Below, piece by piece: positions 10,620 through 39,359 of a DNA stretch of 64,000 nucleotides; positions within the stretch are counted from its first letter, which is position 1; every line of letters begins with the position of its first letter. The position numbers were made by a program, and so were the translations under genes. Below the pieces are notes generated by a model that was not told where the DNA came from, ran no database searches, and saw nothing but the letters and a program-made list of their open reading frames with translations. The DNA comes from Candidatus Wallbacteria bacterium (GTDB taxonomy: Bacteria; Muiribacteriota; JAQTZZ01): positions 124,001 through 188,000 of the forward strand of contig JAQTZZ010000001.1 in assembly GCA_028687545.1 (NCBI GenBank). Reading direction: 5' to 3'.

Positions 10620-11237
10620 TCACGGGATCCCTGATTTAGGAAAGAAATAACACCAGGTGATGAAGCCGATTACCCCGTTAATGGCAGGTGGGAAAAGATA
10701 AAATATATATGCGAACATTGAACTAACAGGCATGGATGACGATTGCGAAACGGTAAATAACAAGAATAAAACCAAACACACGAGGGTTGGTATAATCTGA
10801 CTGAAAAAAATGAGCAACAGAAGGGAAAGTGTTTTCGATGAAGTAATTGAATTGTTAAAAATGAAGCTGATTGTACTGTAAAAACATGTTGCAGTAAAAA
10901 CGCCTATTATTAACAAGACTGTAAATGAAGATCTTTGATAAAAACTTTCAAGAATAGGAAGTGAAACAAAAGCAGACCACACTTTAATAAGATCTGGAAC
11001 GGTAAGATAAGTCAGATTTTGCTTGATCTCGCTGATGGGATCCTGCTTCATAAAAAAAACGACTGCGAGAAAAGGCAGAATCCTTAAAAAGAATTCTTCC
11101 CATTGATTAAAAATCAAAACAGGCATTTTGATTGGAAGAACATGCCAGATAACAAATCTGATTAAGAAAAAGATCAGCAAACCATATAAAATTGACAATG
11201 GCTGATAGAATTTATCTTGAGCTTTACTTCCCTGCAT
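10620..11237 (-). CDS. Multi-pass membrane protein of unknown function
   Basis: About 205 residues with roughly five or six hydrophobic segments (for example at 17-37, 51-62, 88-97, 105-127, 137-161 and 170-198). The coding sequence is AT-rich compared with the flanking housekeeping genes. I do not recognise a family. It lies between an accessory toxin-antitoxin region and the rpmH cluster, where dnaA would often sit, and is probably a later insertion. Confidence 0.55.
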   Translation of the reverse strand: MQGSKAQDKFYQPLSILYGLLIFFLIRFVIWHVLPIKMPVLIFNQWEEFFLRILPFLAVVFFMKQDPISEIKQNLTYLTVPDLIKVWSAFVSLPILESFYQRSSFTVLLIIGVFTATCFYSTISFIFNNSITSSKTLSLLLLIFFSQIIPTLVCLVLFLLFTVSQSSSMPVSSMFAYIFYLFPPAINGVIGFITWCYFFPKSGIP

Positions 11238-15924: not shown

Positions 15925-16731
15925 ATGGGCTCAATACTCTGGGAATTTTTCCTGGACTTCATGACCAGGGGGCTCTGGTACCTGGCCGGGATCATTCTGC
16001 TGCTGGGTGTTTTTTTTATATTCGTGAAGAAAGTCGCAAAACCAATGCTGGCTTCCGGGACTCCTGCTGTGCGGAGAAAAGGCATGCTGGAATTCACGGT
16101 TGTTTCCCTGGTTTTTCTCTGGCTTTTCATCCAGTGCCTGTATCCTCTGATCTCATATTTCTTTTTTTATTATGGGTTGGAGTGCCTGAACGATGGGCAG
16201 ATAGTGAATGCCTATCAGGAATTCCGCGAAGCCGGCAGTTATTTTCCTGGAAACAAGGCTTTCCAGGAAAAGCTGGGAATCGTAGCCTTCATTTCCGGGA
16301 AACACGTTGAGGCCTGCGAAATTCTTGCAGCATCGGATACTCATAATCCGGAAGCGAATGTTTATTACGGCGCAGCCCTCCTGGAGTGCGGAAAGATCGA
16401 CCAGGCAATCCAGATCCTCAACAGTACCCTGAGAAGCGTCTACAACCCGACCATGGCTTTTGTATACCTGGGGAGAAGTTACAGCCGCAAGAACGACTTG
16501 CCCAAAGCTCTGATGTCGTTCCAGAGCGCACTCCAGACAGCCGACAAGTATCAGAATCTCGTCAAATGGGAACTTGTGCAGTATTATGAAAAGACAGGTG
16601 ACTTGAAATACGCTCTTTCACTTTGCAGGGAAATCCTGGATAAACCTGACTTTGACCGCTGGACTTTCCGGGAAGCATTAGCATTTTACAGAAATAACGG
16701 GGGTACGATTGAAATTAAGGCTGGAAATTGA
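15925..16731 (+). CDS. Membrane-anchored TPR protein, cassette unit A
   Basis: Residues about 12-33 and 51-76 are two hydrophobic segments around a short basic FVKKV loop; the rest (about 80-260) is a TPR-like helical array (VNAYQEFREAGSYFPGN, LGRSYSRKNDLPKAL). It shares topology and the FxYGLxCL junction (YYFYYGL-like) with the TPR proteins at 17611-18408 and 19311-20096, so the three are paralogues. It overlaps its partner PAP2 gene by 23 bases. The role is unknown; probably it recruits or senses something for the partner enzyme. Confidence 0.75.
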   Translation: MGSILWEFFLDFMTRGLWYLAGIILLLGVFFIFVKKVAKPMLASGTPAVRRKGMLEFTVVSLVFLWLFIQCLYPLISYFFFYYGLECLNDGQIVNAYQEFREAGSYFPGNKAFQEKLGIVAFISGKHVEACEILAASDTHNPEANVYYGAALLECGKIDQAIQILNSTLRSVYNPTMAFVYLGRSYSRKNDLPKALMSFQSALQTADKYQNLVKWELVQYYEKTGDLKYALSLCREILDKPDFDRWTFREALAFYRNNGGTIEIKAGN

Positions 16732-17614
16732 AGACTGCATAGCACTTTGTTATGCCGCAGTCGTTGGGGCACTCTATGCTGCAGCTTATTTTCAGGATGA
16801 TCCGGTAGTCCGGAGAGACGGTCCCATTTTTTATTATTTCCTGTTCCCTTTTTTACTGGTTGTGCTGAAAGAGGTATTCTGTTACCTGTTTTCCGAAGAC
16901 ATGAAGATCAGCCGTTTTTATATCATCTTCAGAGACTGGTTTCCGTTTCTCCTGATTCTTTCCATGTATTACAGCATGTATGATGGATTGAATCATTTCA
17001 TTGTGCGGACGGACCAGGATGCCCTGCTGGCCAGCTGGGATCTGCATCTGTTCGGGTGCCAGCCTTCCGCGAAGCTTCAGGATCTGGTGAATGTTCCCTA
17101 TCTGACGGACTGGCTTTCCTTCTGCTATTTCAGCTTCATTTTCATTCCGCCTCTGACTGCGGGTTATTTTTACTTGAAAGGGATGCGACTGGCATTCAGA
17201 ATGTCGATGCTGGGTCTCGTAATCATAGAATTCATAGGCTGTTTCGGGTATCTTGCTCTCCCTGCAGTCGGCCCTTTGTATGCCTACAAGGAATGGTACA
17301 CTCAGCCACTGTATGGATCTGTACTTACCGATTCGGTAGCGTACCTTCACAATTTAGCTCGTCTGCCCCGTGACTGCTTCCCGTCTCTTCATACAGGAAT
17401 CACCGCACTTTTCTACTTTTTCCTCTGGCGTTATGCGAGAGTCTTCTTTTTCCTTTCTACTCCAATTATTTGCAGCCTGTGGTTTTCCTGCATGTTTCTC
17501 CGCTTTCATTACCTGGTGGATGTGCTGGCCGGCTTTCTGCTTGCTGTTTTGATATTTCTGTTCGAAATCAGTTATCTTGAAGGATATCTGAGGAGAAGGG
17601 ATTCAAGTTTATGA
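16709..17614 (+). CDS. PAP2_3-type membrane phosphatase/phosphotransferase, unit A
   Basis: A 301-residue polytopic protein with the two catalytic motifs of the PAP2_3/inositol-phosphorylceramide-synthase-like group: DCFPSLHTG (H of the PSLH motif, near 225) and RFHYLVDVLAG (H/D motif, near 275). A conserved GLNHF and LPAVGPLYA lie between membrane segments. Such enzymes move a lipid phosphate headgroup or dephosphorylate an isoprenoid or diacylglycerol phosphate at the membrane surface. The start seems to be TTG inside the TPR gene. Substrate unknown. Confidence 0.8.
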   Translation: MKLRLEIEDCIALCYAAVVGALYAAAYFQDDPVVRRDGPIFYYFLFPFLLVVLKEVFCYLFSEDMKISRFYIIFRDWFPFLLILSMYYSMYDGLNHFIVRTDQDALLASWDLHLFGCQPSAKLQDLVNVPYLTDWLSFCYFSFIFIPPLTAGYFYLKGMRLAFRMSMLGLVIIEFIGCFGYLALPAVGPLYAYKEWYTQPLYGSVLTDSVAYLHNLARLPRDCFPSLHTGITALFYFFLWRYARVFFFLSTPIICSLWFSCMFLRFHYLVDVLAGFLLAVLIFLFEISYLEGYLRRRDSSL

Positions 17615-18408
17615 TCGACATCTGGTGGCAAATGATTCTCTCCTTTCTCAACAACAACACAGGAATTCTTCTGCTGCTGGTTCTGGGGATGATGTTTTTT
17701 TTCATCTTCGTGAAGAAAGTGAAGCAGTACTTTTTTTCCAGGGGGAAGACTGGTGCCGGAGTGACAGTGATCTTCATCTCCTGCCTGTTCTTTTTTCAGT
17801 TCCTGGTTTTCTGTCTGAAGCCGATTGTGGCCTATGTTTATTTTTATTATGGCTTCATCTGCCTCTATGAGAAGAAGCATGATATTGCTTATCAGGAATT
17901 TCTGACTGCCCATCAGCTTTCTCCTGACAACCGGGGAATATTGGACAGGCTGGCTTTCGCGGCATATTCCTCCCGGCCTCCTGAAGAAGCAGTCAAGATA
18001 TTTGAAGAACTTGAGAAAGTCGGCATCAGTTCTGATATGATGATTTACTATGGTCATCTGCTGCTGTCTACAGGAAATCCGGAAAAAGCAAAAAAAATGC
18101 TGGAATTTGCTTCCAAACACGCCTTGCATCCGACGTTTGCGTATTTCTACCTGGGGGTTTACAGGCAGCAGCGCAAGGAGTATCCGGAAGCCCTGGCCCT
18201 GATGCAGAAAACTCTAGCTCAGGCCGGGGAAGACAAAAATTTCGTGCGCTGGTACATGCTGCGGATTTATGGCGAAATGCAGGATGAACCTGCGATGCTT
18301 GCCCTGCTCCGGGAAATGGTGAAGGATCCTGATCCGAACGACAAATACGCGCAGGATGCGCAGAAACTACTTGACGTATATGAAAAAGGAAAAAAAATAC
18401 AGCCTTAA
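17611..18408 (+). CDS. Membrane-anchored TPR protein, cassette unit B
   Basis: A paralogue of 15925-16731, 265 residues: two N-terminal membrane segments with the FIFVKKVKQ loop, then YVYFYYGFICLYEKKHDIAY and a TPR array. Start ATG overlaps the PAP2-A stop as ATGA, so translation is coupled. It overlaps the next PAP2 gene by about 30 bases. Confidence 0.75.
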   Translation: MIDIWWQMILSFLNNNTGILLLLVLGMMFFFIFVKKVKQYFFSRGKTGAGVTVIFISCLFFFQFLVFCLKPIVAYVYFYYGFICLYEKKHDIAYQEFLTAHQLSPDNRGILDRLAFAAYSSRPPEEAVKIFEELEKVGISSDMMIYYGHLLLSTGNPEKAKKMLEFASKHALHPTFAYFYLGVYRQQRKEYPEALALMQKTLAQAGEDKNFVRWYMLRIYGEMQDEPAMLALLREMVKDPDPNDKYAQDAQKLLDVYEKGKKIQP

Positions 18409-19306
18409 CCTGCATCTGGAAGATTACATTGCCATCGGCTTTGTGCTGGTTGTGGGATTGATGTATCTGATCGTCTATCTCAAGCGCTGGCAGGTTACTC
18501 ACGGAATGGCTGTGACATTTTATTATTTTCTTTTTCCTTTCATACTTGTCCTTTTCAAGGAAGCCTTTTCCTATTTTCTTTCAGACAATCCTTCTTCAAA
18601 GTTTTTTCTGAAGGTCCTGCGGGACTGGTTTCCGTTTCTCCTGATCCTTTCCATGTATTACAGCTTCTATGACGGGTTGAATCATTTCATCGTTTCCACA
18701 GACAAGGATCAGCTCCTGGCTGATTGGGACAAATTCCTGTTCGGAGGACACATTTCGGTCTGGCTTGAGCGATACATGGGCATCCCCTATCTGGTGGACT
18801 GGCTCTCTTTCTGTTACCTGGCTTTTGTTTTCCTGATGCCGCTGATAGCCGGAGTCTTTTATTTCAGGCGCGACTATCTGGCGTTCCGCACAGTGATGAT
18901 CGGGGTTGTACTCATGGAGTGCATCGGCTGCCTCGGTTATACGATCATGCCTGCCGTGGGACCCAGATTTGCTTTCCGGGACTGGTACAGCATTTCAATC
19001 ACCGGCGGCAAGATGACATACTGGGCACTTGATTTCATCAATTTCACGCGTCTTCCGCGTGACTGTTTTCCCTCTCTGCATGTCGGACTGACTGCGCTTT
19101 TTTATTTTTCCTCTTTCAGGCATTGCAGGTGGCTGTTCTGGTGTGTCACGCCGGTAATCCTCAGCCTCTGGTTTGCCTGTATTTTCCTGAGATATCATTA
19201 TCTGGTGGATGTTGTTGCCGGACTCTTACTGGCAGTAGCAATTCATTTTTTTTCGGTAAAGGTTCTGGAGCCGTATTACAGGAAGCATGATTTGATTTCC
19301 GGGTGA
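18380..19306 (+). CDS. PAP2_3-type membrane phosphatase/phosphotransferase, unit B
   Basis: Second PAP2_3 paralogue, about 308 residues. Catalytic motifs DCFPSLHVG and RYHYLVDVVAG are intact, with GLNHFIV and IMPAVGPRFA between membrane segments. The open frame begins at 18356, but ATG 18380 aligns with the start of the LHLEDYIAIGF segment shared with the other copies. It lies inside the coupled six-gene run. Confidence 0.78.
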   Translation: MKKEKKYSLNLHLEDYIAIGFVLVVGLMYLIVYLKRWQVTHGMAVTFYYFLFPFILVLFKEAFSYFLSDNPSSKFFLKVLRDWFPFLLILSMYYSFYDGLNHFIVSTDKDQLLADWDKFLFGGHISVWLERYMGIPYLVDWLSFCYLAFVFLMPLIAGVFYFRRDYLAFRTVMIGVVLMECIGCLGYTIMPAVGPRFAFRDWYSISITGGKMTYWALDFINFTRLPRDCFPSLHVGLTALFYFSSFRHCRWLFWCVTPVILSLWFACIFLRYHYLVDVVAGLLLAVAIHFFSVKVLEPYYRKHDLISG

Positions 19307-19310
19307 TTGA

Positions 19311-20096
19311 ATGGGTGTGAAGATCTGGGACCTGGTGCTGTCCTTCTACAAGGACGGAATGAAGGAAGTCTTTCTCCTGCTTTTTTCGCTGGCCGGATAT
19401 CTGATCATTTACAGGAATCTGATGGTTCAAGTAAGGAACAGCGGGAAAAAAATCCTTTATCTGGTGCTGGCTGTCTTTACAGTGTTCTGCCTTCTGATTG
19501 TAATCAGACAGTCAAAGCGAATTACAGGTTTCGTTTATTTTTATTATGGCCTCAAGAGCCAGTCTGAAGAGCAGATAGATCTGGCATTCAAAGAATATTG
19601 TGATGCATACACCCTTTTTCCGGACAATCCCAGGTTTCTGGAGAAGGCCGCATATTTTTCATACTATTTCGCCCTTTTTCAGCAGGCCGTGAAATTGTAT
19701 GATGAGCTCCAGGCACTCGGGAAAATGACCGACAGCGACCGCTATCTGCTGATCGAATGTCTGCTGCAATGCGGGGAACTGCAGAGGGCTGGAAAACTTC
19801 TGGAGAGTATGCCGGAGGGTCAGGAAAACCCGGAAGTCAATTTCTATCTGGGATGGTATTTCTGTAAACTCGGAAAAATGGAAAAATCGCTTGAATATTA
19901 TCGGAAGTCCGCTGCCCTGGATCAAAGAAAATCCCGCTGCTACTGGGAAATGTTCCAGATTGAACTTCAAACCGGAACTAAAGAAGCTCTCTCGGAACTT
20001 TCTAAGATTCTTGAACTTCCGGATAAAACTGATAAGTATTACAAAAAAGCCAGAAGTTATCTAAAAAGCAATTTTCCGGAAAACGGAGATCAATAA
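19311..20096 (+). CDS. Membrane-anchored TPR protein, cassette unit C
   Basis: Third TPR paralogue, 261 residues. N-terminal membrane segments (about 18-35 and 46-66), the YFYYGLKSQSEEQIDLAF junction, then TPRs (YLGWYFCKLGKMEKSLEYY). It starts 4 bases after the PAP2-B stop and ends 8 bases before PAP2-C. It keeps the shared architecture but is divergent in sequence. Confidence 0.75.
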   Translation: MGVKIWDLVLSFYKDGMKEVFLLLFSLAGYLIIYRNLMVQVRNSGKKILYLVLAVFTVFCLLIVIRQSKRITGFVYFYYGLKSQSEEQIDLAFKEYCDAYTLFPDNPRFLEKAAYFSYYFALFQQAVKLYDELQALGKMTDSDRYLLIECLLQCGELQRAGKLLESMPEGQENPEVNFYLGWYFCKLGKMEKSLEYYRKSAALDQRKSRCYWEMFQIELQTGTKEALSELSKILELPDKTDKYYKKARSYLKSNFPENGDQ

Positions 20097-20104
20097 GAGG
20101 CTGA

Positions 20105-21082
20105 ATGGGAATTATGCAGATGGAGCAAAAAAAACTACGGTTCGGCAGCTTCCTGGAAATAGAAGATTATATTGCAGTCCTTTTTGTCGCGATTGTCGGA
20201 GCTCTGTATCTTTACACCTATCTGCACCACCAAAGAGTTTCAGGCGAAAAATTCAATATCTTTTATTATTTCCTGCTCCCGCTGGCACTGGTGATCCTGA
20301 AGGAAACCCTGCTCTACTTTTGGAGCCAGTCAGCATCAGCCTGGGGTTTTGTGAGGATTTTCAGGGACTGGTTTCCCTTCATGCTGATCCTGGGGCTCTA
20401 TTACAGTTTTTACGACGGAGTGAATCAGTTCATAAATCTGGCAGCAAAGGACAGGGTTCTAGCTGATCTTGACGCCTTCCTCTTCGGCGGACAGATTTCG
20501 ATCTACACGGAAAAATTTCTGGATTTTCCCGGCCTGGCAGACTGGCTTTCCTTCGCTTATTTCTCCTTCATCTTCATCCCGGCTCTGATCGGAGGTTTTT
20601 TCTATTTCAAGCGGGATTACCTGAGTTTCAAGTCCGCGATGCTGAGCCTGGTGATCCTGGAATTCTTCGGCTGCCTCGGATATCTGCTGGTGCCTGCCAT
20701 TGGCCCGCTTTATGCTTTCCCGGAATGGTACACCATGCCAGTCTATTCGTTCGGATCTGATTTTAACCGCTGGATGGAAAACATGCACCATCTGGTCAAA
20801 TTACCCAGGGACTGCTTTCCATCCCTGCATACAGCCATCAGTGCACTTTTCCTTTTTTCCTGCTGGCCAAAGTACAGATGGCTTTTTTTTCTGATGTTTC
20901 CCCTGGTTTTCAGCTTGTGGGTGTCGACCGTGATGCTGAGATATCACTACCTGGTTGATGTGTTGGCAGGATTGCTGCTTGCAGCCGCAATTTACTGGCT
21001 GCAGAGAAAACTGATAATTCCCTACTATAAAAAAAGGCTGGAGAGATCTCCAGCCTTTAACGAAACTTTTTTCAAACTCTAG
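20105..21082 (+). CDS. PAP2_3-type membrane phosphatase/phosphotransferase, unit C
   Basis: Third PAP2_3 paralogue, 325 residues. DCFPSLHTA and RYHYLVDVLAG are intact. Its last codons (21033-21058) encode a perfect 12-bp hairpin that also serves as a terminator for the opposing pilus operon, and its end overlaps the pilin end by 4 bases. Confidence 0.8.
   Translation: MGIMQMEQKKLRFGSFLEIEDYIAVLFVAIVGALYLYTYLHHQRVSGEKFNIFYYFLLPLALVILKETLLYFWSQSASAWGFVRIFRDWFPFMLILGLYYSFYDGVNQFINLAAKDRVLADLDAFLFGGQISIYTEKFLDFPGLADWLSFAYFSFIFIPALIGGFFYFKRDYLSFKSAMLSLVILEFFGCLGYLLVPAIGPLYAFPEWYTMPVYSFGSDFNRWMENMHHLVKLPRDCFPSLHTAISALFLFSCWPKYRWLFFLMFPLVFSLWVSTVMLRYHYLVDVLAGLLLAAAIYWLQRKLIIPYYKKRLERSPAFNETFFKL
21029..21058 (-). 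terminator. Rho-independent terminator of the pilus operon, inside a coding end
   Basis: AAAGGCTGGAGA (21033-21044) pairs perfectly with TCTCCAGCCTTT (21047-21058). On the minus strand the stem is followed by seven T (complement of the A run 21029-21035), giving a classic terminator just past the pilin stop. The same bases are coding sequence for the convergent PAP2-C gene. Confidence 0.75.
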
Positions 21083-30988: not shown

Positions 30989-31300
30989 TCAGACCGCTTT
31001 TTTTCGGGATGACTTAGCGCTGCAAACTGCCACCTGCTGTTTTGTAAATGATTGCAGGGGATATTTCCCGGGGTTTTCGAGATTATCGATTTCCAGGTCA
31101 ACATCCAGTTCAGGCCAATACAGATGATATCCGTGCGTCAGGGTTACATTCAGGATTGATTTCAGTGTCTGGTCCTTGAAATAAGGAAACTCTGCATAGC
31201 TGAGAAAATACTCTTTCAGGTCGGCAAAAAGCCAGATACCGAAAGGTGTCACGTTTTCAACGCTTACCGAAATGCTCCTGCCAGGCACTGATAATTTCAC
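30989..31300 (-). CDS. DUF2442 protein
   Basis: About 103 residues matching DUF2442: YFLSYAEFPYFKDQTL and LYWPELDVDLEIDNLENP. I place the start at GTG 31300 because GAGGAG lies 7 bases before it; an in-frame TTG at 31315 lacks one. It overlaps the upstream DUF4160 gene by 44 bases. DUF4160-DUF2442 pairs recur as small accessory modules and have been suggested to be toxin-antitoxin-like, but function is unproven. Confidence 0.8.
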   Translation of the reverse strand: MKLSVPGRSISVSVENVTPFGIWLFADLKEYFLSYAEFPYFKDQTLKSILNVTLTHGYHLYWPELDVDLEIDNLENPGKYPLQSFTKQQVAVCSAKSSRKKAV

Positions 31301-31499
31301 TCTTGTGCTCCTCAATGATTTTCTGGATCTCTTTCAATTTTCCCGGGTTCAATTCATGGTAGACAGCAAGGGAAATGATCGGCTCCAGCCAGAATTTGGC
31401 TTCCCCGTTCTCACAGGTAACGTGAACATGGATCCTGTTCTCCTCGTTCGACAGGAAATAGAACCTGTATCCCTTATTCCTGAAAATTGTCGGACTCAT
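31257..31499 (-). CDS. DUF4160 protein
   Basis: About 80 residues matching DUF4160: SPTIFRNKGYRFYFLSNEE, HVHVTCENGEAKFWLEPI and the C-terminal helical region EEHKSEIISAWQEHFG. ATG 31499 is used; the frame stays open 30 codons further upstream. A near-consensus promoter ends only 9 bases before this ATG, so the mRNA is probably leaderless. First gene of the pair with DUF2442. Confidence 0.85.
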   Translation of the reverse strand: MSPTIFRNKGYRFYFLSNEENRIHVHVTCENGEAKFWLEPIISLAVYHELNPGKLKEIQKIIEEHKSEIISAWQEHFGKR

Positions 31500-31537: not shown

Positions 31538-31617
31538 TCAGGCAGCTTTTCGCATTTTCGAAGGTGGCAAGGTAGTTCTCTGAAAGCATCGATTTATGTT
31601 ATAGTGTAAACATAAGA

Positions 31618-31692
31618 GGCACTTACAAAACTCATTTTCAGGTCTGAGAATGAACTTTTCAGTAATTCGGTTGCAAGAGTTTTGTTAGTGCC
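31618..31692. repeat. Stem-loop element with GGCACTTACAAAACTC arms
   Basis: GGCACTTACAAAACTC (31618-31633) pairs with GAGTTTTGTTAGTGCC (31677-31692), 15 of 16 positions. It lies just before the GAGCCTCT hairpin at 31699-31726 and looks like a third, diverged type of the same stem-loop family. Confidence 0.65.
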
Positions 31693-31698
31693 CCTTAG

Positions 31699-31726
31699 GA
31701 GCCTCTAATCTTAAGACAAGAGGCTC
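31699..31726. repeat. GAGCCTCT hairpin
   Basis: GAGCCTCT (31699-31706) pairs with AGAGGCTC (31719-31726) with a 12-base loop. Same arms as the elements at 22856 and 28491. Tandem with 31618-31692. Confidence 0.65.
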
Positions 31727-31788
31727 ATAAATCTAGTTAATTATCACTTGACCAATGAACTTTCGGTTAACTTTAAGGGAAAGAAGAG

Positions 31789-32337
31789 ATGAAAGTCTGG
31801 AAATGCAAGTGCGGAGAAATAAATCTCGAACAGGAAAAGAAATGCGGGTTGTGCCGAAAAACGCGCAAAAATGAAGTTGTTGAGGAAATGGATCCTGTTC
31901 AGAAAAAAGACGTATTTCCAGAAAGCCAGTTCCAGAAGAGTAGTATTTTAGAAGAATCGTCAATACCTATTCTTAAAGACAGCTATCTAATACCCAAAAA
32001 GCTGACAATAGACTTTTTCGCTGGAATAATTTCAGTTTTTTTAGCTGGTTTTGTATTTTATTATTTCAGAGATCAATTTAAACATCCGGAAATTTTACAT
32101 ACTTCAATTTTAGTCATTATTGTGTGCCTGTTAGCGTTGTTAAGGGATAATTATATTAAAGGGTTTATAACAGGAATCTTTTTACTTTCGACTGGTTTTT
32201 TAATAATAATCCCTTATTTAGCATATCGTAGATGGGGATCTAGTTCGATCTGGTTTTTGTTAAGTGTGCTGTTGCTGCCATTATTATTTTTTGGGGCATG
32301 CACGATTTCCTTTATTAAAAATCCAGGGGGGTGTTAG
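31789..32337 (+). CDS. Tandem zinc-finger membrane protein, member 1
   Basis: 182 residues. The N-terminal finger is KVWKCKCGEINLEQ, then CGLC: W-x-C-x-C-G-x-x-N and C-x-x-C, a compact four-cysteine zinc finger resembling the RanBP2 type but with C-x-C in the first pair. A charged linker (30-65) leads to three or four membrane segments (about 68-88, 102-114, 118-138, 150-170). The last ends LLFFGACTISF and the protein ends in GGC. First of six tandem paralogues. Promoter not obvious. Confidence 0.75.
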   Translation: MKVWKCKCGEINLEQEKKCGLCRKTRKNEVVEEMDPVQKKDVFPESQFQKSSILEESSIPILKDSYLIPKKLTIDFFAGIISVFLAGFVFYYFRDQFKHPEILHTSILVIIVCLLALLRDNYIKGFITGIFLLSTGFLIIIPYLAYRRWGSSSIWFLLSVLLLPLLFFGACTISFIKNPGGC

Positions 32338-32382
32338 AGTTTTTTCAATGGAAAGAAATTTCGACAAAGAGCAGGTATCTGA

Positions 32383-32859
32383 ATGAAAATGTGGAAATGC
32401 CGCTGCGGCATAGTTTATCAGGAAAAAAGTTCAGTCTGCAGTAAATGCGGGCAGATTCTAGTCGAGCAAAACGATAATGAAACAACATCTGGACAGGTGA
32501 ATTCTCAATCTGAGGATTCGAATTTATTAAGAGTTGATTTTTTCCCACGCAAACCATTAACTATCGAGTATTTCATCGGAATAGCGGCTTTTATTATCGC
32601 TTTGATAGCCGTTGAAATATGGATTAAACAAACACCTGCTGGCTCGATTGTGTTCCGCGATGGGATACTTTGGAAAGGTTTGACAGGCCTATGGATTTTT
32701 GTATGTGTTTTTCGCAAAAGAATTCAGTTTTGGAGAGGCGTGCTTACTGCATTTTTATGGGCAGTACTTTTCGCTTTTCTATTTATGGGAGCATGTACAC
32801 TAGGGATGCTTAATATGATTCAGGACGGGCTTAACAAGGGAATTCCAATCGGATGTTAA
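32383..32859 (+). CDS. Tandem zinc-finger membrane protein, member 2
   Basis: 158 residues: MWKCRCGIVYQEKSSVCSKCG finger, linker, then membrane segments about 65-82, 97-109 and 120-137. The last membrane segment contains LFMGACTLG and the protein ends in IPIGC. PLTIEYFIGIAAF matches LTIDFFAGIISVF of member 1. Paralogue of 31789-32337. Confidence 0.75.
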   Translation: MKMWKCRCGIVYQEKSSVCSKCGQILVEQNDNETTSGQVNSQSEDSNLLRVDFFPRKPLTIEYFIGIAAFIIALIAVEIWIKQTPAGSIVFRDGILWKGLTGLWIFVCVFRKRIQFWRGVLTAFLWAVLFAFLFMGACTLGMLNMIQDGLNKGIPIGC

Positions 32860-32900
32860 TGAGATGTGAAAAACTCAGTATCATCACACATGGTGAAATT

Positions 32901-33377
32901 ATGAAAGTCTGGAAATGCAAGTGTGGGGAAACGAATCCAGAGCAGCTAGGAGTTTGCAGTCAGTGTGGTGGGCAAATCCCTTCAAAACCTAAAACAAAAA
33001 CACTTGTTATTTTAGTTGGAATTTCGATTTTTTTAGCAGCATCTTGTTTATGGTATTATTTCAGAAACCAGTTTGAGTACCCGTTATATGTTCTACTAAT
33101 CATTCTAGTCGTAACCGGTTTGATGCTTGCGATATTGAGAGAAACTGATTTTATTTCAGGAAGGACTCACACTGAAAGCGACAATGAGCAAAGTCCAGAT
33201 TTTTTTTCAAAGCGGCCGGCAACACCTGAACACTATGAATCTTGTAACGAAGCTGATTCTAAAAACATGGGGTGTTTTGCAGTTTTGTTCTATTTTATTT
33301 TTGCATTGATATTTCTGATTTCGCTGCTTTTCGGTGCATTTGCATTGTTTACAGGATCAAGAGCAGGCTGCAATTAA
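32901..33377 (+). CDS. Tandem zinc-finger membrane protein, member 3
   Basis: 158 residues from ATG 32901, chosen because the family finger begins there (KVWKCKCGETNPEQ, CSQCGG); the open frame starts 16 codons earlier and overlaps member 2. Membrane segments at about 34-48, 62-77 and 125-150; the last has LLFGAFALF, with Phe where the others have Cys, and the end is SRAGCN. Confidence 0.7.
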   Translation: MKVWKCKCGETNPEQLGVCSQCGGQIPSKPKTKTLVILVGISIFLAASCLWYYFRNQFEYPLYVLLIILVVTGLMLAILRETDFISGRTHTESDNEQSPDFFSKRPATPEHYESCNEADSKNMGCFAVLFYFIFALIFLISLLFGAFALFTGSRAGCN

Positions 33378-33396
33378 AATATTGGTAGGTATCTGA

Positions 33397-33645
33397 ATGA
33401 AAATCTGGAAATGCAGATGCGGGACGTTGAACGAGGAACTAGTAATATCCTGCCGCAATTGTGGTGAACCCAGGCCAGATGAAATCAATAGTGATGAGAA
33501 AACGGGGCAGGAAGAAGCTGTATCTGGTTCCGAGTCGGCCTCCGGGCTTTTAAAGGGCTGCTTTATTATTGTAAATATTGTGGTGTTAATCATTGTTTTG
33601 CTATACGGCGCGTGCTTTTTCGTTGGACTGGTGAAAGGAAATTGA
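33397..33645 (+). CDS. Tandem zinc-finger membrane protein, member 4 (short)
   Basis: 82 residues: finger IWKCRCGTLNEE ... CRNCG, short charged linker, then one membrane segment ending LLYGACFFVGLVKGN. It has lost the first membrane segments and keeps only the finger plus the terminal GAC segment, which marks those two parts as the core of the family. Confidence 0.7.
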   Translation: MKIWKCRCGTLNEELVISCRNCGEPRPDEINSDEKTGQEEAVSGSESASGLLKGCFIIVNIVVLIIVLLYGACFFVGLVKGN

Positions 33646-33656
33646 AGGGATTGAGA

Positions 33657-34085
33657 ATGAAATCCTGGAAATGCAAATGCGGTATTGTAAATCCAGATTT
33701 TAAGGCAACCTGCAGTAAATGCGGGCAACACAGATCTGAAAATTTTGTTGCAGGTACACTGCCAGGGAATCAGGGAAAAACCAACACTAATAATAAGCAA
33801 AACACGATTGATCAACCTGTTAAAAAAAAATCGAACAAGTATTACTACGGTATGTTGATTACAATTATTACAATCTGGACTTCTTTGCATCCAGGACTGA
33901 TTAATCTGTTTTTAGCCTTAATAATTATACTTGCAATTTTTGCGGATATTAACTAGGATTTTCAATCTGGTTTTAAAACAATTTGGAATTTCTGGTCTTT
34001 GCTTTCTCTAGTAATTTTTGTCTCAGCTATCATAATCCTAAACTGGGATAGACTGGAGGTTTTTTTACTGGGACTGTGGCTTTAG
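33657..34085 (+). pseudogene. Tandem zinc-finger membrane protein, member 5, interrupted by an in-frame TAG
   Basis: The frame opens with SWKCKCGIVNPDFK and CSKCG. It stops at TAG 33954-33956 after 99 residues. Reading on in the same frame gives 42 more hydrophobic codons (DFQSGFKTI ... FLLGLWL) to a second TAG at 34083-34085. This part aligns with member 6 (KDFLCGIYNGF and following membrane segment), so the first TAG cuts a former longer gene. The last GAC segment is missing. Probably decaying; readthrough is possible but unsupported. Confidence 0.65.
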
Positions 34086-34253
34086 TTTGAGGAGCCTATT
34101 TGGCGTTGAAAAATATTTGCTGCATTTTCATTGAAATTACTGTTAGCTTGAATTATGGACTTATGCACTATATGGATTCTTTATGACTCAATATAGATGA
34201 GATGTTAGCGATTTTATGAACACATAGGTTTTCTTGAAAAAAAAGGATTGTAA

Positions 34254-34736
34254 ATGAAAATCTGGAAATGCAAATGCGGGGAAGTGAACGAAGAGCAGGT
34301 TGATTTCTGCCTCAAGTGCGGACATTTAAGAACCGATGAAATAATTGTGGAAAAATTGCCGGAATCTCAGGAAGACAAAATTCCTGATCAATTATCAATT
34401 CCAGAGAAAACTAATATTATTTTCAAATATTTTGAAATTCCCAAACCTGTTACATTTGCATTTCTGGCCGGTGTGGCAGCATTTTATCTATCTTTGTATG
34501 TGTTTTACAAGATGTTTTCGCTATTTACACCCAAGACAAGCTTAACCCCATGGGCTGTCGTTCTGACCGAACTACTTTGTCTGGAAGCTTTAATGTTTGC
34601 ATTTCGCAAAAAAAAGGATTTTTTGTGCGGTATTTATAATGGATTTAGGTTATCTATTTTACTGATTTTCCTCTTGTTACTACTGTTGTTTGGATCGTGT
34701 ACTTATGTTTTTTTAAATTACGGCTGCAGTGGTTGA
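34254..34736 (+). CDS. Tandem zinc-finger membrane protein, member 6
   Basis: 160 residues: IWKCKCGEVNEEQVDFCLKCG, linker with EKLPESQEDK similar to the linker in member 1, membrane segments about 62-82, 101-113 and 126-150. The last segment carries LLFGSCTYV and the protein ends YGCSG. It sits 23 bases before the Tes-like operon. Confidence 0.75.
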   Translation: MKIWKCKCGEVNEEQVDFCLKCGHLRTDEIIVEKLPESQEDKIPDQLSIPEKTNIIFKYFEIPKPVTFAFLAGVAAFYLSLYVFYKMFSLFTPKTSLTPWAVVLTELLCLEALMFAFRKKKDFLCGIYNGFRLSILLIFLLLLLLFGSCTYVFLNYGCSG

Positions 34737-34759: not shown

Positions 34760-36142
34760 ATGGACTTGATGCAAAATAATTTATCTGACACAGCGTCAAT
34801 CTGCCCGGAATGCAGAAAGCTAATTCCCGCTGCTTATGTTGAAAGAGCCGGAGCGGTTTATCTGGATAAAACCTGCCCTGAGCACGGGGAATTCCACAGC
34901 CTTGTCGAAGAAGATGCACGTTTTTTTCATCGCAGAGCTGAATTTGACAAGCCTGCCACTGAATCGATCAAGCAGACTGTTAAAACTAAAGGCTGTCCTC
35001 ATGACTGCGGTCTTTGCGATCAGCATGATCAGCATACCTGCATTGCTGTGCTGGAAATAACCGGGGAGTGCGATTTGTCCTGTCCGGTTTGCTATGCGCA
35101 ACCTCTCACAGGCGGATTCATGGCCTTGGAAACTGTCGGGAAAATACTGGATTTTTACCAGCACTGCGAGTCAGGGAATGCGGAGATCCTGCAGCTCAGC
35201 GGAGGAGAGCCTACGCTTCATCCGCAACTGCTCAAAATCATCGAAACTGCGATTGATAAGAAAATAAAGTATGTGATGCTGAATACAAATGGCTATAACC
35301 TGGCTCACAATAAAGAATTGGTTAAAAGCCTGGCCGGAATCGGCTCAGGCTTCGAGATTTATCTGCAGTTTGACGGGCTGCAGCCTGGCTCAATGCAGAC
35401 ACTCAGAGGAATTGATCAGCTTTCCTGGAAAATCAGAGCCTTAGACAACATTCTGGAATCCGGGATTCCTGTGACTCTGGTTACTACTGTTGCCAATGGA
35501 ATCAATGACGATCAGCTTGGCGAAATCTTGAATTACGGCATTTCCAGGCCAGGCATCAGAGGCATCAATTTCCAGGCTGCAGCAGCTTTCAGTCCAAGCT
35601 CTCCAGTCAACGCGGAACAATGCATCACAATCAGCGGCCTGGCTGCCAGGCTTGAAAAACAGACTTCCGGACTCATCAAAATCAATGACCTGGTTCCCCT
35701 GCCCTGCAATGTGCATAACCATGGCCTGACTTTCATGGTGCGGAATGAGAGGGGGTTCCAGCCCATTACCCGCCAGGTGGATCTCAAGCCTCACCTGGAC
35801 CTGATCGAAAATTCCTTTTATCATGACGCTACAGGGATTATGAAAAAAATGGAATCAGGGTTGTGTGGAAATTCAACTGTCTGCAAGTGCATGAGTTTTC
35901 TGACTGATTTCAGCACCATGCTGCCTGAACTTTTCAAAAGCGGCACGCTCGAACAAAAGCGGAATTTCATCAACCACAATCTATTCAGAATCAGCCTGAG
36001 CAGATTCAATGACCTGCATTCATTTGCCCTGGACGCAGTAGCCAAGGAATGTGTGCATATTTTTACGCCTGATCTGCTGAGGATTCCTTTTTCAGTCTAC
36101 AACCTGTTCCATCGCGGAGGAAAAAAAGCACATGCCGAATAA
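34760..36142 (+). CDS. Tes-like radical SAM enzyme (tetraether-lipid-synthase family)
   Basis: 460 residues. The radical SAM motif ECDLSCPVCYA (C-x3-C-x2-C) binds the core [4Fe-4S]. Two extra cysteine regions precede it: ICPECRKLIPA with TCPEHGEF, and GCPHDCGLCDQHDQHTC. This layout is that of the Tes/MJ0619 family, whose archaeal member joins two lipid tails by C-C bond formation. QLSGGEPTLHP is the SAM-binding GGE motif. It leads a run of five overlapping genes that includes membrane enzymes. In a bacterium the substrate would be a bacterial lipid, which is inference. Bacterial homologues are known but mostly uncharacterised. Confidence 0.82.
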   Translation: MDLMQNNLSDTASICPECRKLIPAAYVERAGAVYLDKTCPEHGEFHSLVEEDARFFHRRAEFDKPATESIKQTVKTKGCPHDCGLCDQHDQHTCIAVLEITGECDLSCPVCYAQPLTGGFMALETVGKILDFYQHCESGNAEILQLSGGEPTLHPQLLKIIETAIDKKIKYVMLNTNGYNLAHNKELVKSLAGIGSGFEIYLQFDGLQPGSMQTLRGIDQLSWKIRALDNILESGIPVTLVTTVANGINDDQLGEILNYGISRPGIRGINFQAAAAFSPSSPVNAEQCITISGLAARLEKQTSGLIKINDLVPLPCNVHNHGLTFMVRNERGFQPITRQVDLKPHLDLIENSFYHDATGIMKKMESGLCGNSTVCKCMSFLTDFSTMLPELFKSGTLEQKRNFINHNLFRISLSRFNDLHSFALDAVAKECVHIFTPDLLRIPFSVYNLFHRGGKKAHAE

Positions 36143-36797
36143 TCCCGCAGTTATGCTCCTGTTACTCAAAGAGCGATTCCTGACCGGTGACATTTACGTA
36201 AAAATTGATATCATTGCTGCCTTGATTGTCGTGATCTGCGCCTGGCTGATCATTGTCTCAGTTTTCATGAATTTCATGGATGCCCAGAAAGCTGATAAAG
36301 TACGCCATGAAAAGAAACACCTGGTAGCAACTGCCAGCATGAGCCTGTTTTATCTGTTTTATTATCTGCTGCTCCGCTTCCAGATCGGCGGTTTCCGGAT
36401 CGCGGACCCGATGCTCCGCCTGACTCTCATCTTCATTGGCCTGACTGTTCTGATCACAGGCACTGCTGTTAATCTTCTGGGAAGATTGTCTCTGGGTCAT
36501 AACTGGGGGGATCAGATCAGGATTTATCACGGCCATCAGCTGGTCAATCGCGGAGTTTACAGGCTGGTCAGGCATCCGCTGTATGCTTCGCTGATCTGGA
36601 TTTTTTACGCGGGCTGCCTGATTTATCCGAATTACGCGGGTTTCCTTGCCAATACTGCCGTATTTCTGCCCATGATGTTTTACAGGGCCAGGCAGGAAGA
36701 AGAGATCCTGATCCGGGAATTTCCAGAATATATAAATTATCAAAAGGAGGTCGGCATGTTCATGCCCATTTTCAGGAGGCGCAATGACGGAAAATAA
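36132..36797 (+). CDS. Isoprenylcysteine carboxyl methyltransferase-like membrane protein
   Basis: 221 residues with about five membrane segments. The C-terminal half has the ICMT/PEMT fold motif: GVYRLVRHPLYAS and RARQEEEILIREFPEY followed by a P-containing tail. Related enzymes use SAM to methylate lipids or prenylated substrates at the membrane. It overlaps the Tes-like gene by 11 bases, so both are coupled. The real methyl acceptor is unknown. Confidence 0.8.
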   Translation: MPNNPAVMLLLLKERFLTGDIYVKIDIIAALIVVICAWLIIVSVFMNFMDAQKADKVRHEKKHLVATASMSLFYLFYYLLLRFQIGGFRIADPMLRLTLIFIGLTVLITGTAVNLLGRLSLGHNWGDQIRIYHGHQLVNRGVYRLVRHPLYASLIWIFYAGCLIYPNYAGFLANTAVFLPMMFYRARQEEEILIREFPEYINYQKEVGMFMPIFRRRNDGK

Positions 36798-37221
36798 AGT
36801 GATGGTTTCAAGGGGAGGGTTCCTTTTCTGCAGATGGACTGTGGCAGTAATACTCTGGTGCGCGTTTTTTCTGCGGAGCAGGGAACTGGTGATTTTGTCC
36901 TGCGCGATTCTTGCTCTGTCAGCACTGCTCAAGATCAGGAAAGCTCCTCTGGTCTGGATTTACACGATGACACTGGGAAAATTGTTCCAGTCTTCTTTGG
37001 AAGAGCTGGACGAATCCGCAATGCGTTTCGCGCATTCCTTCGGCACAGTGCTGCATCTGATCGCGATTTCATTGCTCTATCTGCCAAACCCCAGGGCCGG
37101 CTGGCTGCTGGTGCTGATCCTATGCTTCGGTAAAACCGCAGGAGCCATGGGATTCTGCACAGCCCTGAAGATTTACGGCTGCCTGAAGAGCGGCGGCTGC
37201 TGCAGATTTACCGGCAAATGA
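36784..37221 (+). CDS. DUF4395-like membrane protein
   Basis: 145 residues with four likely membrane segments and a C-terminal cysteine cluster (MGFCTALKIYGCLKSGGCC). The GFC-x-x-x-K-I-Y-G-C pattern resembles DUF4395 proteins. Overlaps the ICMT-like gene (14 bases) and the Lgt-like gene (4 bases). Function unknown; the cysteines may bind metal or form disulfides. Confidence 0.6.
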   Translation: MTENKVMVSRGGFLFCRWTVAVILWCAFFLRSRELVILSCAILALSALLKIRKAPLVWIYTMTLGKLFQSSLEELDESAMRFAHSFGTVLHLIAISLLYLPNPRAGWLLVLILCFGKTAGAMGFCTALKIYGCLKSGGCCRFTGK

Positions 37222-37997
37222 ATACAGTCCAGTGCTGCCCTCAGAACTGGGGAGTTCTGCCTGTACTTTTCCATTTCGGGAATGTTTTGATCAGCAGTTA
37301 TTTCGTGTTTATCGGCCTGGGCCTCATGGCTGCACTTGCTTCATATTACCTGGAATTCCGGCGGGAACCTCAACGCAATGCCCAACTCTTGCCGCTGGTG
37401 TTTTTCGCTTTTGCGGGTGGTGTAATAGGTGCCAAGCTTCCTATGTGGATCATTAATTTTAAAGCGATCATAGCCGGTGGTTTTGCGCCTGAGCTGATTT
37501 TTCCCGGTAAAACCATAGTCGGAGGCCTGATCGGCGGCACGATCGCAGTCAGGATCGCTAAAAGGCAAATGGGTATCAAAACCAGGATGGGAAATTCCAT
37601 TGCTCCTGCGATCGCGATTGGACTGGCTGTTGCCAGGATCGGCTGCTTCCTGCAGGGCTGTTGCTTCGGAAGACCGACACTTCTTCCCTGGGGCGTGAAT
37701 TTCGGCGATGGAATCATGCGACATCCGACTCAGCTTTATGAGTCGCTTTTCATGTTCGTTCTGTTCTTTTTGCTGATCCGTAAAAGCAGGAACAATCCTG
37801 CCCCAGGTGAACTCTTCGACTTTCTGATGGCCATGTATTTCGGTTTCAGGTTTTTCGAGGAATTTTTGCGTGCGAGCGATATCGTCTTTATAGGACTGAC
37901 AGGATATCAGCTTGTTTCCCTGCCGCTCGCGAGCTGGTTCGGTTTAAGGCTGAACAGCAGCTTGATATTCCGGAAAGGCAAGGAAGAAAGTCCATGA
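37218..37997 (+). CDS. Lgt-like prolipoprotein diacylglyceryl transferase family protein
   Basis: 259 residues with seven or so membrane segments. The ARIGCFLQGCCFGRPT stretch carries the Arg of the Lgt signature G-R-x-G-N-F-x-N-G in divergent form, and RHPTQLYE is the conserved HPxQLYE of Lgt. Canonical Lgt transfers diacylglyceryl from phosphatidylglycerol to lipobox cysteine. The altered signature and operon with Tes-like and ICMT-like genes suggest a specialised paralogue working on another acceptor. It overlaps neighbours by 4 bases at both ends. Confidence 0.78.
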   Translation: MNTVQCCPQNWGVLPVLFHFGNVLISSYFVFIGLGLMAALASYYLEFRREPQRNAQLLPLVFFAFAGGVIGAKLPMWIINFKAIIAGGFAPELIFPGKTIVGGLIGGTIAVRIAKRQMGIKTRMGNSIAPAIAIGLAVARIGCFLQGCCFGRPTLLPWGVNFGDGIMRHPTQLYESLFMFVLFFLLIRKSRNNPAPGELFDFLMAMYFGFRFFEEFLRASDIVFIGLTGYQLVSLPLASWFGLRLNSSLIFRKGKEESP

Positions 37998-38854
37998 AAA
38001 TATCGATAAAAAGGATAATCCGCTCTATAGTCGAAATCATAGTTGTCACCTACCTGATCAGCGCTTGTTTTCTGTATTTTTTCCAGGACAAGCTCCTTTT
38101 TCTGACCACCAGGGAAATGTACAGCACCACTCCTGCAATCCACGGCATTGAGTACAAAGACGTTTATTTCAAGACAAAGGACGGGCTGAAGCTGCACGGC
38201 TGGTTCATCACCGGAAAATCAGAAAATCCGTATCTTCTTTTCTGCCACGGCAATGCGGAAAATGTCTCAGGACTGCTGGAATCAGCCCTGCAGTTTTACC
38301 AGCTCGGCTTGAATGTGCTTTTCTTTGATTATCGCTGCTACGGCAAAAGTGAAGGAAAGACAATCTCCGAAACAGGCACTTACCTGGATGCTGAGGCTGC
38401 CTGGGATTTCATGGTGAATGAATTGAAAATCCCGTCTGATAAGATCATCATTTTCGGCAGGTCGCTAGGTGGAGCAGTAGCGACAAAACTGGCAAGTGAG
38501 CGGACCTGCGAAGCCCTGATCGTGGAATCAGGATTTTATTCGGCAACTGAGCGGGCAGCTGAACTCTATAAATGGTATCCGATAAAATGGATGATCAGGA
38601 ATCCTTACGAGTCAGGCAAGAATCTCCGCAGCATCAAATGTCCGGTCTTAATCATCCACAGCCCAGATGATGAGATCATCCCCTTCCATCACGGCCAGGA
38701 ATTGTTCGCTGCAGCTAATGAACCGAAGAGATTTCTGACCCTTAAAGGGGACCATAATAACGGATACTGGATTTATCAGGAGATTTACCTGGCAGGGATA
38801 AAGCAGTTTTTAGTGGAATTTAATTTGATGAATTTCAGAGCAGCGGGCCGCTGA
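37994..38854 (+). CDS. Membrane-anchored alpha/beta hydrolase (ABHD13/YqiK-like)
   Basis: 286 residues: N-terminal membrane anchor (about 12-30), then an alpha/beta hydrolase domain with CHGNAENVSG, DYRCYGKSEG, nucleophile elbow GRSLGGAVA, acid HSPDDEIIP, and His in GDHNNGY. It is the last gene of the Tes-like run (4-base overlap). Likely acts on an ester or lipid at the membrane; substrate unknown. Confidence 0.78.
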   Translation: MKISIKRIIRSIVEIIVVTYLISACFLYFFQDKLLFLTTREMYSTTPAIHGIEYKDVYFKTKDGLKLHGWFITGKSENPYLLFCHGNAENVSGLLESALQFYQLGLNVLFFDYRCYGKSEGKTISETGTYLDAEAAWDFMVNELKIPSDKIIIFGRSLGGAVATKLASERTCEALIVESGFYSATERAAELYKWYPIKWMIRNPYESGKNLRSIKCPVLIIHSPDDEIIPFHHGQELFAAANEPKRFLTLKGDHNNGYWIYQEIYLAGIKQFLVEFNLMNFRAAGR

Positions 38855-39359
38855 TTACGAGCAGCAGGATGCCTGAGAGGAAGAGGAGAAGGGCGTAGCG
38901 GAAGAAGCGGAATTTCTTGTGTGCGATGCAGGCATTGGCGTAAACTCCGATCAGAATGTCCCTGTCCAGGGGAGACAAAGCCTCTGATCCGTAATATTTC
39001 TTCACAATAGCTTGCTCGAAAGAGGCGAATTCAGGGAAAGAGGCGATTTCAGAGAAAAGGAACAGGTTGCGCTCCCTGCTGTCTGTGCCTGGCGCACTTT
39101 TCAGGCTGGGCGGATTGTTGATCACAGGAAAGAATGACCAGAAAGACAGGACCAGGGCCAGCACAATCAGGCAGTAGCCTGTGGAAAACAGAAGCTGCGG
39201 CCAGGTTGTGAATCCCAGTTTCTGATAGATCAGGAGCACGATCGCGCCGGCTGAAGCCGCCACTGCCGAATTCTTGGCTTCAGCGTATTTCACCATATCC
39301 TGGAGATTCAGGAAAATCCTGAAAATCGTCTCGCGTAGAGGTGCGTCAGGGCAATTCAT
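38835..39359 (-). CDS. Pycsar-effector/DUF5706-like membrane protein
   Basis: 174 residues. LNLQDMVKYAEAKNSAVAASAG at the N-terminal side resembles the Y-A-D-x-K-A-x-x-L motif of DUF5706/Pycsar-effector and related 2-3TM proteins. Three membrane segments at about 33-47, 53-76 and 150-173, with the AHKKFRFFRYALLLFL region before the last. Such proteins are membrane effectors of nucleotide-signal defence systems. No cyclase is adjacent, so a defence role is only a possibility. Convergent with the hydrolase gene (20-base overlap). Confidence 0.5.
   Translation of the reverse strand: MNCPDAPLRETIFRIFLNLQDMVKYAEAKNSAVAASAGAIVLLIYQKLGFTTWPQLLFSTGYCLIVLALVLSFWSFFPVINNPPSLKSAPGTDSRERNLFLFSEIASFPEFASFEQAIVKKYYGSEALSPLDRDILIGVYANACIAHKKFRFFRYALLLFLSGILLLVISGPLL

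What the first reader, a model, noticed from the sequence alone, without database searches (positions are those of the whole stretch)
31789..34736. Six tandem paralogues: N-terminal zinc finger joined to a C-terminal membrane segment with a GAC motif
Each starts with W-K-C-[KR]-C-G-x-x-N/Y followed by C-x-x-C, resembling a RanBP2 finger with a shortened first pair. Each intact member ends in a membrane segment carrying (L/F)xGAC or GSC and most end in Gly-Cys. Linkers and middle membrane segments vary and member 4 retains only finger and tail. The AT-rich base composition and serial duplication suggest fast evolution, as in immune, contact-dependent or surface-variation loci. I know of no described family with this shape.
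Basis: seen in the sequence. Interest (0 to 1): 0.82.

Follow-up and report, generated by a model that had tools for sequence, protein, structure and literature searches.

The report
Repeated zinc-finger membrane protein genes
An uncultured bacterium of the Wallbacteria group carries six side-by-side, long-diverged copies of a gene for a small membrane protein with a zinc-binding finger at its front; the general design is widespread in bacteria, so this is an undescribed local expansion of a known kind of protein rather than a new kind of system.

Summary
The array is real. Six ORFs on the + strand at 31789-34736 start with M-K-x-W-K-C-[KR]-C-G...C-x-x-C, and several copies are homologous along their whole length. 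Four of six carry GAC/GSC in the last membrane segment. Member 3 has GAF. Member 5 stops at an in-frame TAG before its tail. Only two copies end exactly in Gly-Cys.

AlphaFold predicts the finger well (first 20 residues, pLDDT about 88). It superposes on RanBP2/NZF fingers and the ArnA finger at about 0.5-0.8 Å, although the Pfam RanBP model does not detect it. The bodies match no Pfam, NCBIfam or PHROGs family at cut-off.

The architecture is not unique. Twelve genes in this genome, in six places, carry the same strict finger near the N terminus of different membrane bodies, including a CAAX-type protease. The pattern occurs in many phyla, and zinc-ribbon-plus-membrane proteins such as TcaA are known.

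Fast or diversifying evolution is not supported: synonymous sites are saturated and the finger is under purifying selection. Defence, contact or surface roles have no direct evidence.

Most likely these are inner-membrane proteins whose cytosolic finger docks a partner; that function is inferred. Side findings: a lipid-enzyme gene run 23 bp downstream, toxin-antitoxin-type neighbours, a dispersed palindromic repeat.

The parts
31789..32337 (+). member 1, 182 aa: finger (1-26), charged linker, about 4 membrane segments, LLFFGACT, ends PGGC
32383..32859 (+). member 2, 158 aa: finger with Tyr in place of Asn12, 2-3 membrane segments, FMGACT, ends IGC
32901..33377 (+). member 3, 158 aa (the likely start is 32901, not 32853): finger, about 3 membrane segments, LLFGAF instead of GAC, ends AGCN
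33397..33645 (+). member 4, 82 aa: finger, linker and one membrane segment only, LLYGAC, ends KGN
33657..33956 (+). member 5, 99 aa: finger and membrane stretch, stopped by an in-frame TAG before any tail
33957..34085 (+). continuation of member 5's frame after the TAG, with one membrane-like segment and no GAC: probable remnant of its tail
   Evidence: (profile match runs across the TAG, E=1.3e-32)
34254..34736 (+). member 6, 160 aa: finger, about 3 membrane segments, LLFGSCT, ends YGCSG
31617..31728 (.). dispersed palindromic repeat (two hairpins) just upstream of the array; 24 full or partial places in the genome
31257..31589 (-). DUF4160 protein, toxin-antitoxin-type neighbour, divergent from the array
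30989..31315 (-). DUF2442 protein, partner of the DUF4160 gene
34760..36142 (+). radical SAM protein with HMPTM zinc ribbon, related to TrsS and tetraether synthase Tes but below both cut-offs; starts 23 bp after the array
36132..36797 (+). ICMT/PEMT-type membrane methyltransferase
36784..37221 (+). DUF4395 membrane protein
37218..37997 (+). Lgt-family (prolipoprotein diacylglyceryl transferase-like) membrane protein
37994..38854 (+). alpha/beta hydrolase; its 56%-identical relative lies about 2.4 kb from a finger gene in the sister-genus genome

Best explanation
The locus is a lineage-specific tandem expansion, now old and partly decaying, of a small inner-membrane protein. Each copy displays an N-terminal, cytosolic, single-zinc finger of the RanBP2/NZF fold (Cys6, Cys8, Cys19, Cys22), followed in most copies by a charged linker and then one to four membrane segments. 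The most likely way it works is as a membrane-tethered docking protein: the finger binds a cytosolic partner, protein more likely than RNA, and the membrane part fixes that partner at, or couples it to, the membrane. Different copies have kept the finger and varied the linker and membrane part. Shown: paralogy, finger conservation under purifying selection, predicted finger fold, hydrophobic segments, placement of the same finger type on other membrane bodies in the same genome. Inferred: zinc binding, cytosolic placement of the finger, partner docking. Not shown: the partner, expression, any phenotype. Confidence is about 0.85 for the identity and evolutionary part and about 0.4 for the docking mechanism; the figure given is for the whole.
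For: Four Cys, Trp4 and Gly9 are invariant in all six copies. Nonsynonymous change is below synonymous change in every finger pair (pN 0.23-0.41 against pS 0.58-0.94), and orphan C50 against m1 has dN 0.08 and dS 0.97 over the finger. The AlphaFold finger model matches RanBP2/NZF and ArnA fingers, whose solved relatives bind Ran, ubiquitin or ssRNA or sit in the ArnAB complex. The stretch before the first hydrophobic segment is rich in K and R (6 to 15 residues), which favours an inside N terminus. The same finger starts other membrane proteins in the genome: a Rce1-like CAAX protease at C5, glycine-rich membrane proteins at C9, one at C55, and an orphan at C50 whose first 49 residues are 59% identical to m1 while its body differs. 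A described protein, S. aureus TcaA, has an intracellular zinc finger joined to one membrane span in an AlphaFold model (PMC10328498), and member 2's N terminus gives a weak hit to the TcaA model (E=0.005).
Against: No partner is identified. The bodies have no homologue of known function. By crude hydropathy the number of membrane segments differs in parity between copies, so a conserved C-terminal side is not established. Members 4 and 5 are reduced or truncated, which weakens the case that every copy works. The full-length model is poor outside the finger (mean pLDDT 60).
Confidence: 0.45

Rival explanations
1. The array is an accessory-gene block of the toxin-antitoxin or defence sort: small hydrophobic effectors whose finger senses or is restrained by something, carried in AT-rich islets.
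For: Low G+C. The array abuts a DUF4160/DUF2442 pair; DUF4160 occurs 3 times in the genome. A finger-CAAX-protease gene lies about 0.5 kb from one of only 5 ORF6N places, and in the sister genus an ORF6N gene lies 38 bp upstream of a finger gene. A PIN gene at C55 and a nucleotidyltransferase gene at C50 lie within about 2.5 kb of finger genes. A PycTM-like gene lies at 38835-39359.
Against: The families were chosen after seeing the neighbours, so the count (4 of 6 loci within 3 kb of one of 38 such genes) is only suggestive. The copies are old (dS saturated), unlike fast-turnover defence genes. No relative was confirmed in viral contigs and PHROGs gave no convincing match. PADLOC was not run.
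Confidence: 0.17
2. The array works with the downstream run of membrane/lipid enzymes (radical SAM of the Tes/TrsS branch, ICMT, DUF4395, Lgt-like, hydrolase), as membrane subunits, substrates or regulators.
For: The radical SAM gene starts 23 bp after member 6 on the same strand, and no terminator-like site was found in the gap. A second Tes-like pair in the genome (C9:106200-109736) lies about 5 kb from the second finger cluster (C9:114972-122409). The alpha/beta hydrolase relative also lies near a finger gene in the sister genus.
Against: G+C and GC3 change sharply at the junction (GC3 0.32-0.49 in the array against 0.52-0.59 downstream). Fourteen other genomes of the phylum have the radical SAM gene at E<=1e-40, and none of them has a match to the array profile at E<=0.01. 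Shuffled sequence gives about as many terminator-like sites as were found, so their absence says little.
Confidence: 0.15
3. The array is a relic: an old duplicated accessory membrane gene drifting towards loss, with no present function for most copies.
For: Member 5 is truncated by a stop, member 4 is reduced to 82 aa, a 297-bp gap with a remnant follows member 5, and base composition is AT-rich.
Against: Finger residues are invariant in all six copies and synonymous change exceeds nonsynonymous change; plausible ribosome sites precede most starts.
Confidence: 0.2

Closest known systems
RanBP2/NZF-type zinc finger (Pfam PF00641, Zn_ribbon_RanBP)
   Same: W-x-C...C-x3-N-x6-C-x2-C spacing; predicted fold superposes on solved members at about 0.5-1.5 A over 25-28 residues
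   Different: First pair is C-x-C rather than C-x2-4-C; the Pfam model does not detect any array member
ArnA N-terminal zinc finger (Sulfolobales; PDB 5a8i, 8s05)
   Same: M-x-W-K-C...C-G-x-x-N...C-x-x-C-G at the extreme N terminus; best fold match and a profile match at E=2e-4
   Different: To my knowledge ArnA is a soluble FHA-domain signalling protein; its first pair has one more residue (alignment)
TcaA (Staphylococcus; NCBIfam NF053815)
   Same: Intracellular zinc finger followed by a membrane segment (PMC10328498); weak profile hit of member 2 over its N terminus (E=0.005)
   Different: TcaA has one span and a large extracellular part; array members are 82-182 aa with up to four spans and no extracellular domain; far below the family cut-off (15.7 of 550 bits)
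Generic zinc-ribbon domains of Pfam (PF13240, PF13248, DUF7577 PF24463)
   Same: C-x1-2-C-G...C-x-x-C-G ribbons; best but sub-threshold hits of members 4, 5 and 6
   Different: Scores of 10-17 bits against cut-offs of 25-28; membership not reached

Membership tests
RanBP2-type zinc finger (PF00641) | Match to the Pfam model above its cut-off | tested here: not met
   no array member among the matches at E<=10; best in the genome 20 bits of 27
RanBP2-type zinc finger (PF00641) | Fold: two stacked short hairpins around one C4 zinc site | tested here: met
   predicted model, pLDDT about 88 over residues 1-20, prob about 0.97-0.99 to solved RanBP2/NZF fingers (E-values 0.35 and above because of the short length)
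RanBP2-type zinc finger (PF00641) | C-x2-4-C first pair | tested here: not met
   C6-x-C8 in all six
RanBP2-type zinc finger (PF00641) | Binds one zinc ion | not testable with these tools
   needs metal analysis of the purified finger
TcaA family (NF053815) | Score above family cut-off; single span plus extracellular domain | tested here: not met
   15.7 bits of 550; no large extracellular part
Rapidly diversifying or surface-variation locus | dN above dS, or recent near-identical copies | tested here: not met
   dN below dS in all pairs; dS saturated or above 1 in all array pairs
Rapidly diversifying or surface-variation locus | Copy number differs between strains | not testable with these tools
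   no genome of the same genus is held
Single shared 'finger tag' family within this genome | Fingers on other bodies closer to array fingers than unrelated fingers of the same pattern | tested here: not met
   only C50 exceeds all 83 worldwide fingers; the other eight do not differ from them (Mann-Whitney p=0.19)
Anti-phage defence system | Match to a PADLOC model | not tested
   PADLOC search not run; PHROGs gave no convincing match

The most novel reading that the evidence does not exclude
In this family of Wallbacteria one N-terminal finger type has proliferated onto many unrelated membrane proteins (this array, a CAAX-type protease, glycine-rich membrane proteins, an ankyrin-repeat protein in the sister genus) as an interchangeable N-terminal address that one dedicated cytosolic partner reads to gather membrane proteins. 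For it: twelve strict-pattern genes in one genome against 90 stretches in a collection covering 84,980 species, all within the first nine residues, and orphan C50 as a case of an m1-like front on another body. Against it: apart from C50 the fingers are not demonstrably closer to each other than to generic ones, and the pattern was derived from this genome.
Probability: 0.2. Interest if true: 0.55.

Novelty: new member of a known kind. Interest (0 to 1): 0.27.

Why it matters
It documents an undescribed, lineage-specific expansion of membrane proteins bearing a RanBP2/NZF-fold finger in an uncultured phylum. If the finger proves to be a common docking address, it would be a simple bacterial way of assembling membrane proteins on one cytosolic partner. 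As it stands the find is modest: the architecture is common and the function untested.

Tried and rejected
Rejected or led nowhere:

- A genome-contig scan with the six-protein alignment confirmed no relative by tblastn; viral contigs likewise.
- Pfam, NCBIfam and PHROGs gave nothing above cut-off for any member. PADLOC was not run.
- An integron-cassette reading was dropped because gaps between most copies are 11-45 bp with no repeated site other than the coding start.
- A lipoprotein-like reading of the GAC motif (Lgt-family gene nearby; weak hit of member 2 to NCBIfam 'invert_tail', E=0.23) was dropped: it is far below cut-off, member 3 lacks the Cys, and hydrophobic residues continue past the Cys. 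The library held no paper on 'lipo-invert'.
- Diversifying selection: dS is saturated, so only purifying constraint on the finger can be read.
- A shared ancestry of all fingers in the genome could not be shown.
- No Rfam family in the region.
- The whole genome was not available as a file, so neighbour statistics rest on family searches chosen after inspection.
- The full-length fold search returned only finger matches of any weight.

Full report
What is there. The window lies in contig 1 of a 4.54-Mb draft genome (97% complete, 108 contigs). Their first 29 codons align without gaps, with nine invariant residues, and the coding stretch is a six-copy direct repeat with spacings of 594, 518, 496, 260 and 597 bases. 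BLAST between the proteins shows homology beyond the finger: m1-m6 E=2e-22, m2-m6 E=1e-17, m1-m2 E=2e-10, m4-m6 tail E=6e-4. These are true tandem paralogues.

Details that differ from the finding. Member 3 begins at 32901. GAC/GSC is found in m1, m2, m4 and m6; m3 has GAF. Member 5 ends at TAG 33954-33956, and a profile match to the family continues through that stop, with a further membrane-like stretch to 34085, so member 5 is probably a truncated gene. Only m1 and m2 end exactly in Gly-Cys. Hydropathy gives about 4, 2, 3, 1, 1 and 3 membrane segments for members 1 to 6.

The finger. An alignment of 15 fingers from this genome and G001 gives an AlphaFold model with pLDDT about 88 over the first 20 residues and two short hairpins. 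Foldseek against the PDB ranks the ArnA finger, Nup153/NUP358 fingers bound to RanGDP, ZRANB2 bound to RNA and TRABID NZF1 bound to ubiquitin among the first (rmsd 0.5-1.5 Å; E-values weak because the domain is about 25 residues, probabilities about 0.97-0.99). A profile of the fingers finds a chain named RanBP2-type zinc finger (6e-6), ArnA (2e-4) and archaeal eL40. The Pfam RanBP model does not report any array member even at E=10, as expected from the shortened C-x-C pair. So it is RanBP2/NZF-like in predicted fold, and not a member by the curated sequence test.

Where else the finger occurs. In its own genome the array profile finds further N-terminal copies at C50 (first 49 residues 59% identical to m1, body different), four at C9 (glycine-rich membrane proteins), one at C5 (Rce1-like CAAX protease, Pfam 4e-21) and one at C55. 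In G001 it finds two larger proteins, one with ankyrin repeats. A strict pattern scan of a collection covering 84,980 species found 90 stretches in Clostridia and other Firmicutes, Planctomycetes, Bacteroidetes, Nitrosopumilus, Proteobacteria and others. Some are N-terminal with membrane segments behind (Planctomycetes L107 and L148; Clostridia L100 with two genes; Lachnospiraceae L101, L105 and relatives), many are C-terminal or multi-finger. The architecture is therefore widespread. A test of whether this genome's fingers form one close group was negative except for C50.

Evolution. Synonymous differences are at or near saturation (pS 0.58-0.94 in the finger) and nonsynonymous differences are lower in all pairs (0.23-0.41); C50 against m1 gives dN 0.08 and dS 0.97 over the finger. 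This is old duplication with constraint on the finger. The rest of the proteins is less constrained. G+C and GC3 are well below the neighbours. Strain-level copy-number variation cannot be tested here.

Surroundings. Upstream on the other strand is a DUF4160/DUF2442 pair, and between it and the array lies a copy of a dispersed palindromic repeat. Downstream, 23 bp after member 6, begins a same-strand run: radical SAM of the TrsS/Tes branch (E 6.5e-93 and 1e-81, below both cut-offs), ICMT-type methyltransferase, DUF4395, Lgt-family protein and hydrolase. Finger genes elsewhere lie near ORF6N, PIN and nucleotidyltransferase genes. Four of six finger loci lie within 3 kb of one of 38 such genes. 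The families were picked after inspection, so this is a lead only.

How it most likely works. An inside N terminus (K/R-rich stretch before the first hydrophobic segment), a finger fold whose solved relatives bind proteins or RNA, and variable membrane parts suggest membrane-tethered docking. The closest described analogue in layout is TcaA, with an intracellular zinc finger and one span by AlphaFold (PMC10328498). Zinc binding, topology and partner are inferred. Rivals (accessory toxin/defence block, helper of the lipid enzymes, decaying relic) are listed with tests.

Verdict. The immune or surface-variation interpretation is unsupported. This is an undescribed family of a known kind.

Noticed in passing
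31617-31728: Copy of a dispersed palindromic repeat: a roughly 80-bp element with about 16-bp terminal inverted repeats (GGCACTTACAAAACTC...GAGTTTTGTTAGTGCC) plus a second hairpin (GAGCCTCT...AGAGGCTC); 24 full or partial places in the genome, MITE- or REP-like. One Y1 transposase match in the genome (C73:9447).
   Followed up: partly
34760-38854: Gene run joining a Tes/TrsS-branch radical SAM protein, an ICMT-type methyltransferase, DUF4395, an Lgt-family protein and an alpha/beta hydrolase; looks like a membrane-lipid or lipid-attachment module. The radical SAM protein is below cut-off for both TrsS and Tes.
   Followed up: partly
L048 and L021 (G000 contig 9, 106200-109736 and 114972-122409): A second pair of Tes-like radical SAM genes lies about 5 kb from the genome's other cluster of finger-membrane genes.
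   Followed up: no
L020:6598-7050 (-), G000 contig 50: Orphan gene whose first 49 codons match member 1 (59% identity, finger dN 0.08) while the membrane body is unrelated: front-end swap between genes.
   Followed up: partly
L022:5427-7123 (-) and L050:4455-7558 (+): ORF6N-domain gene directly upstream of, and on the same strand as, a finger-membrane gene in two genera, although ORF6N genes are few (5 and 9 places per genome).
   Followed up: partly
38835-39359 (-): Protein matching the Pycsar effector membrane domain PycTM (E=2.5e-7); no cyclase partner was looked for.
   Followed up: no
10620-11237 (-): AT-rich (G+C 0.35) 205-aa membrane protein with no Pfam match, compositionally like the array.
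   Followed up: no
15925-21082 (+): Three alternating pairs of similar-looking membrane proteins (about 265 and 315 aa), apparently another tandem duplication of membrane genes in the same window.
   Followed up: no
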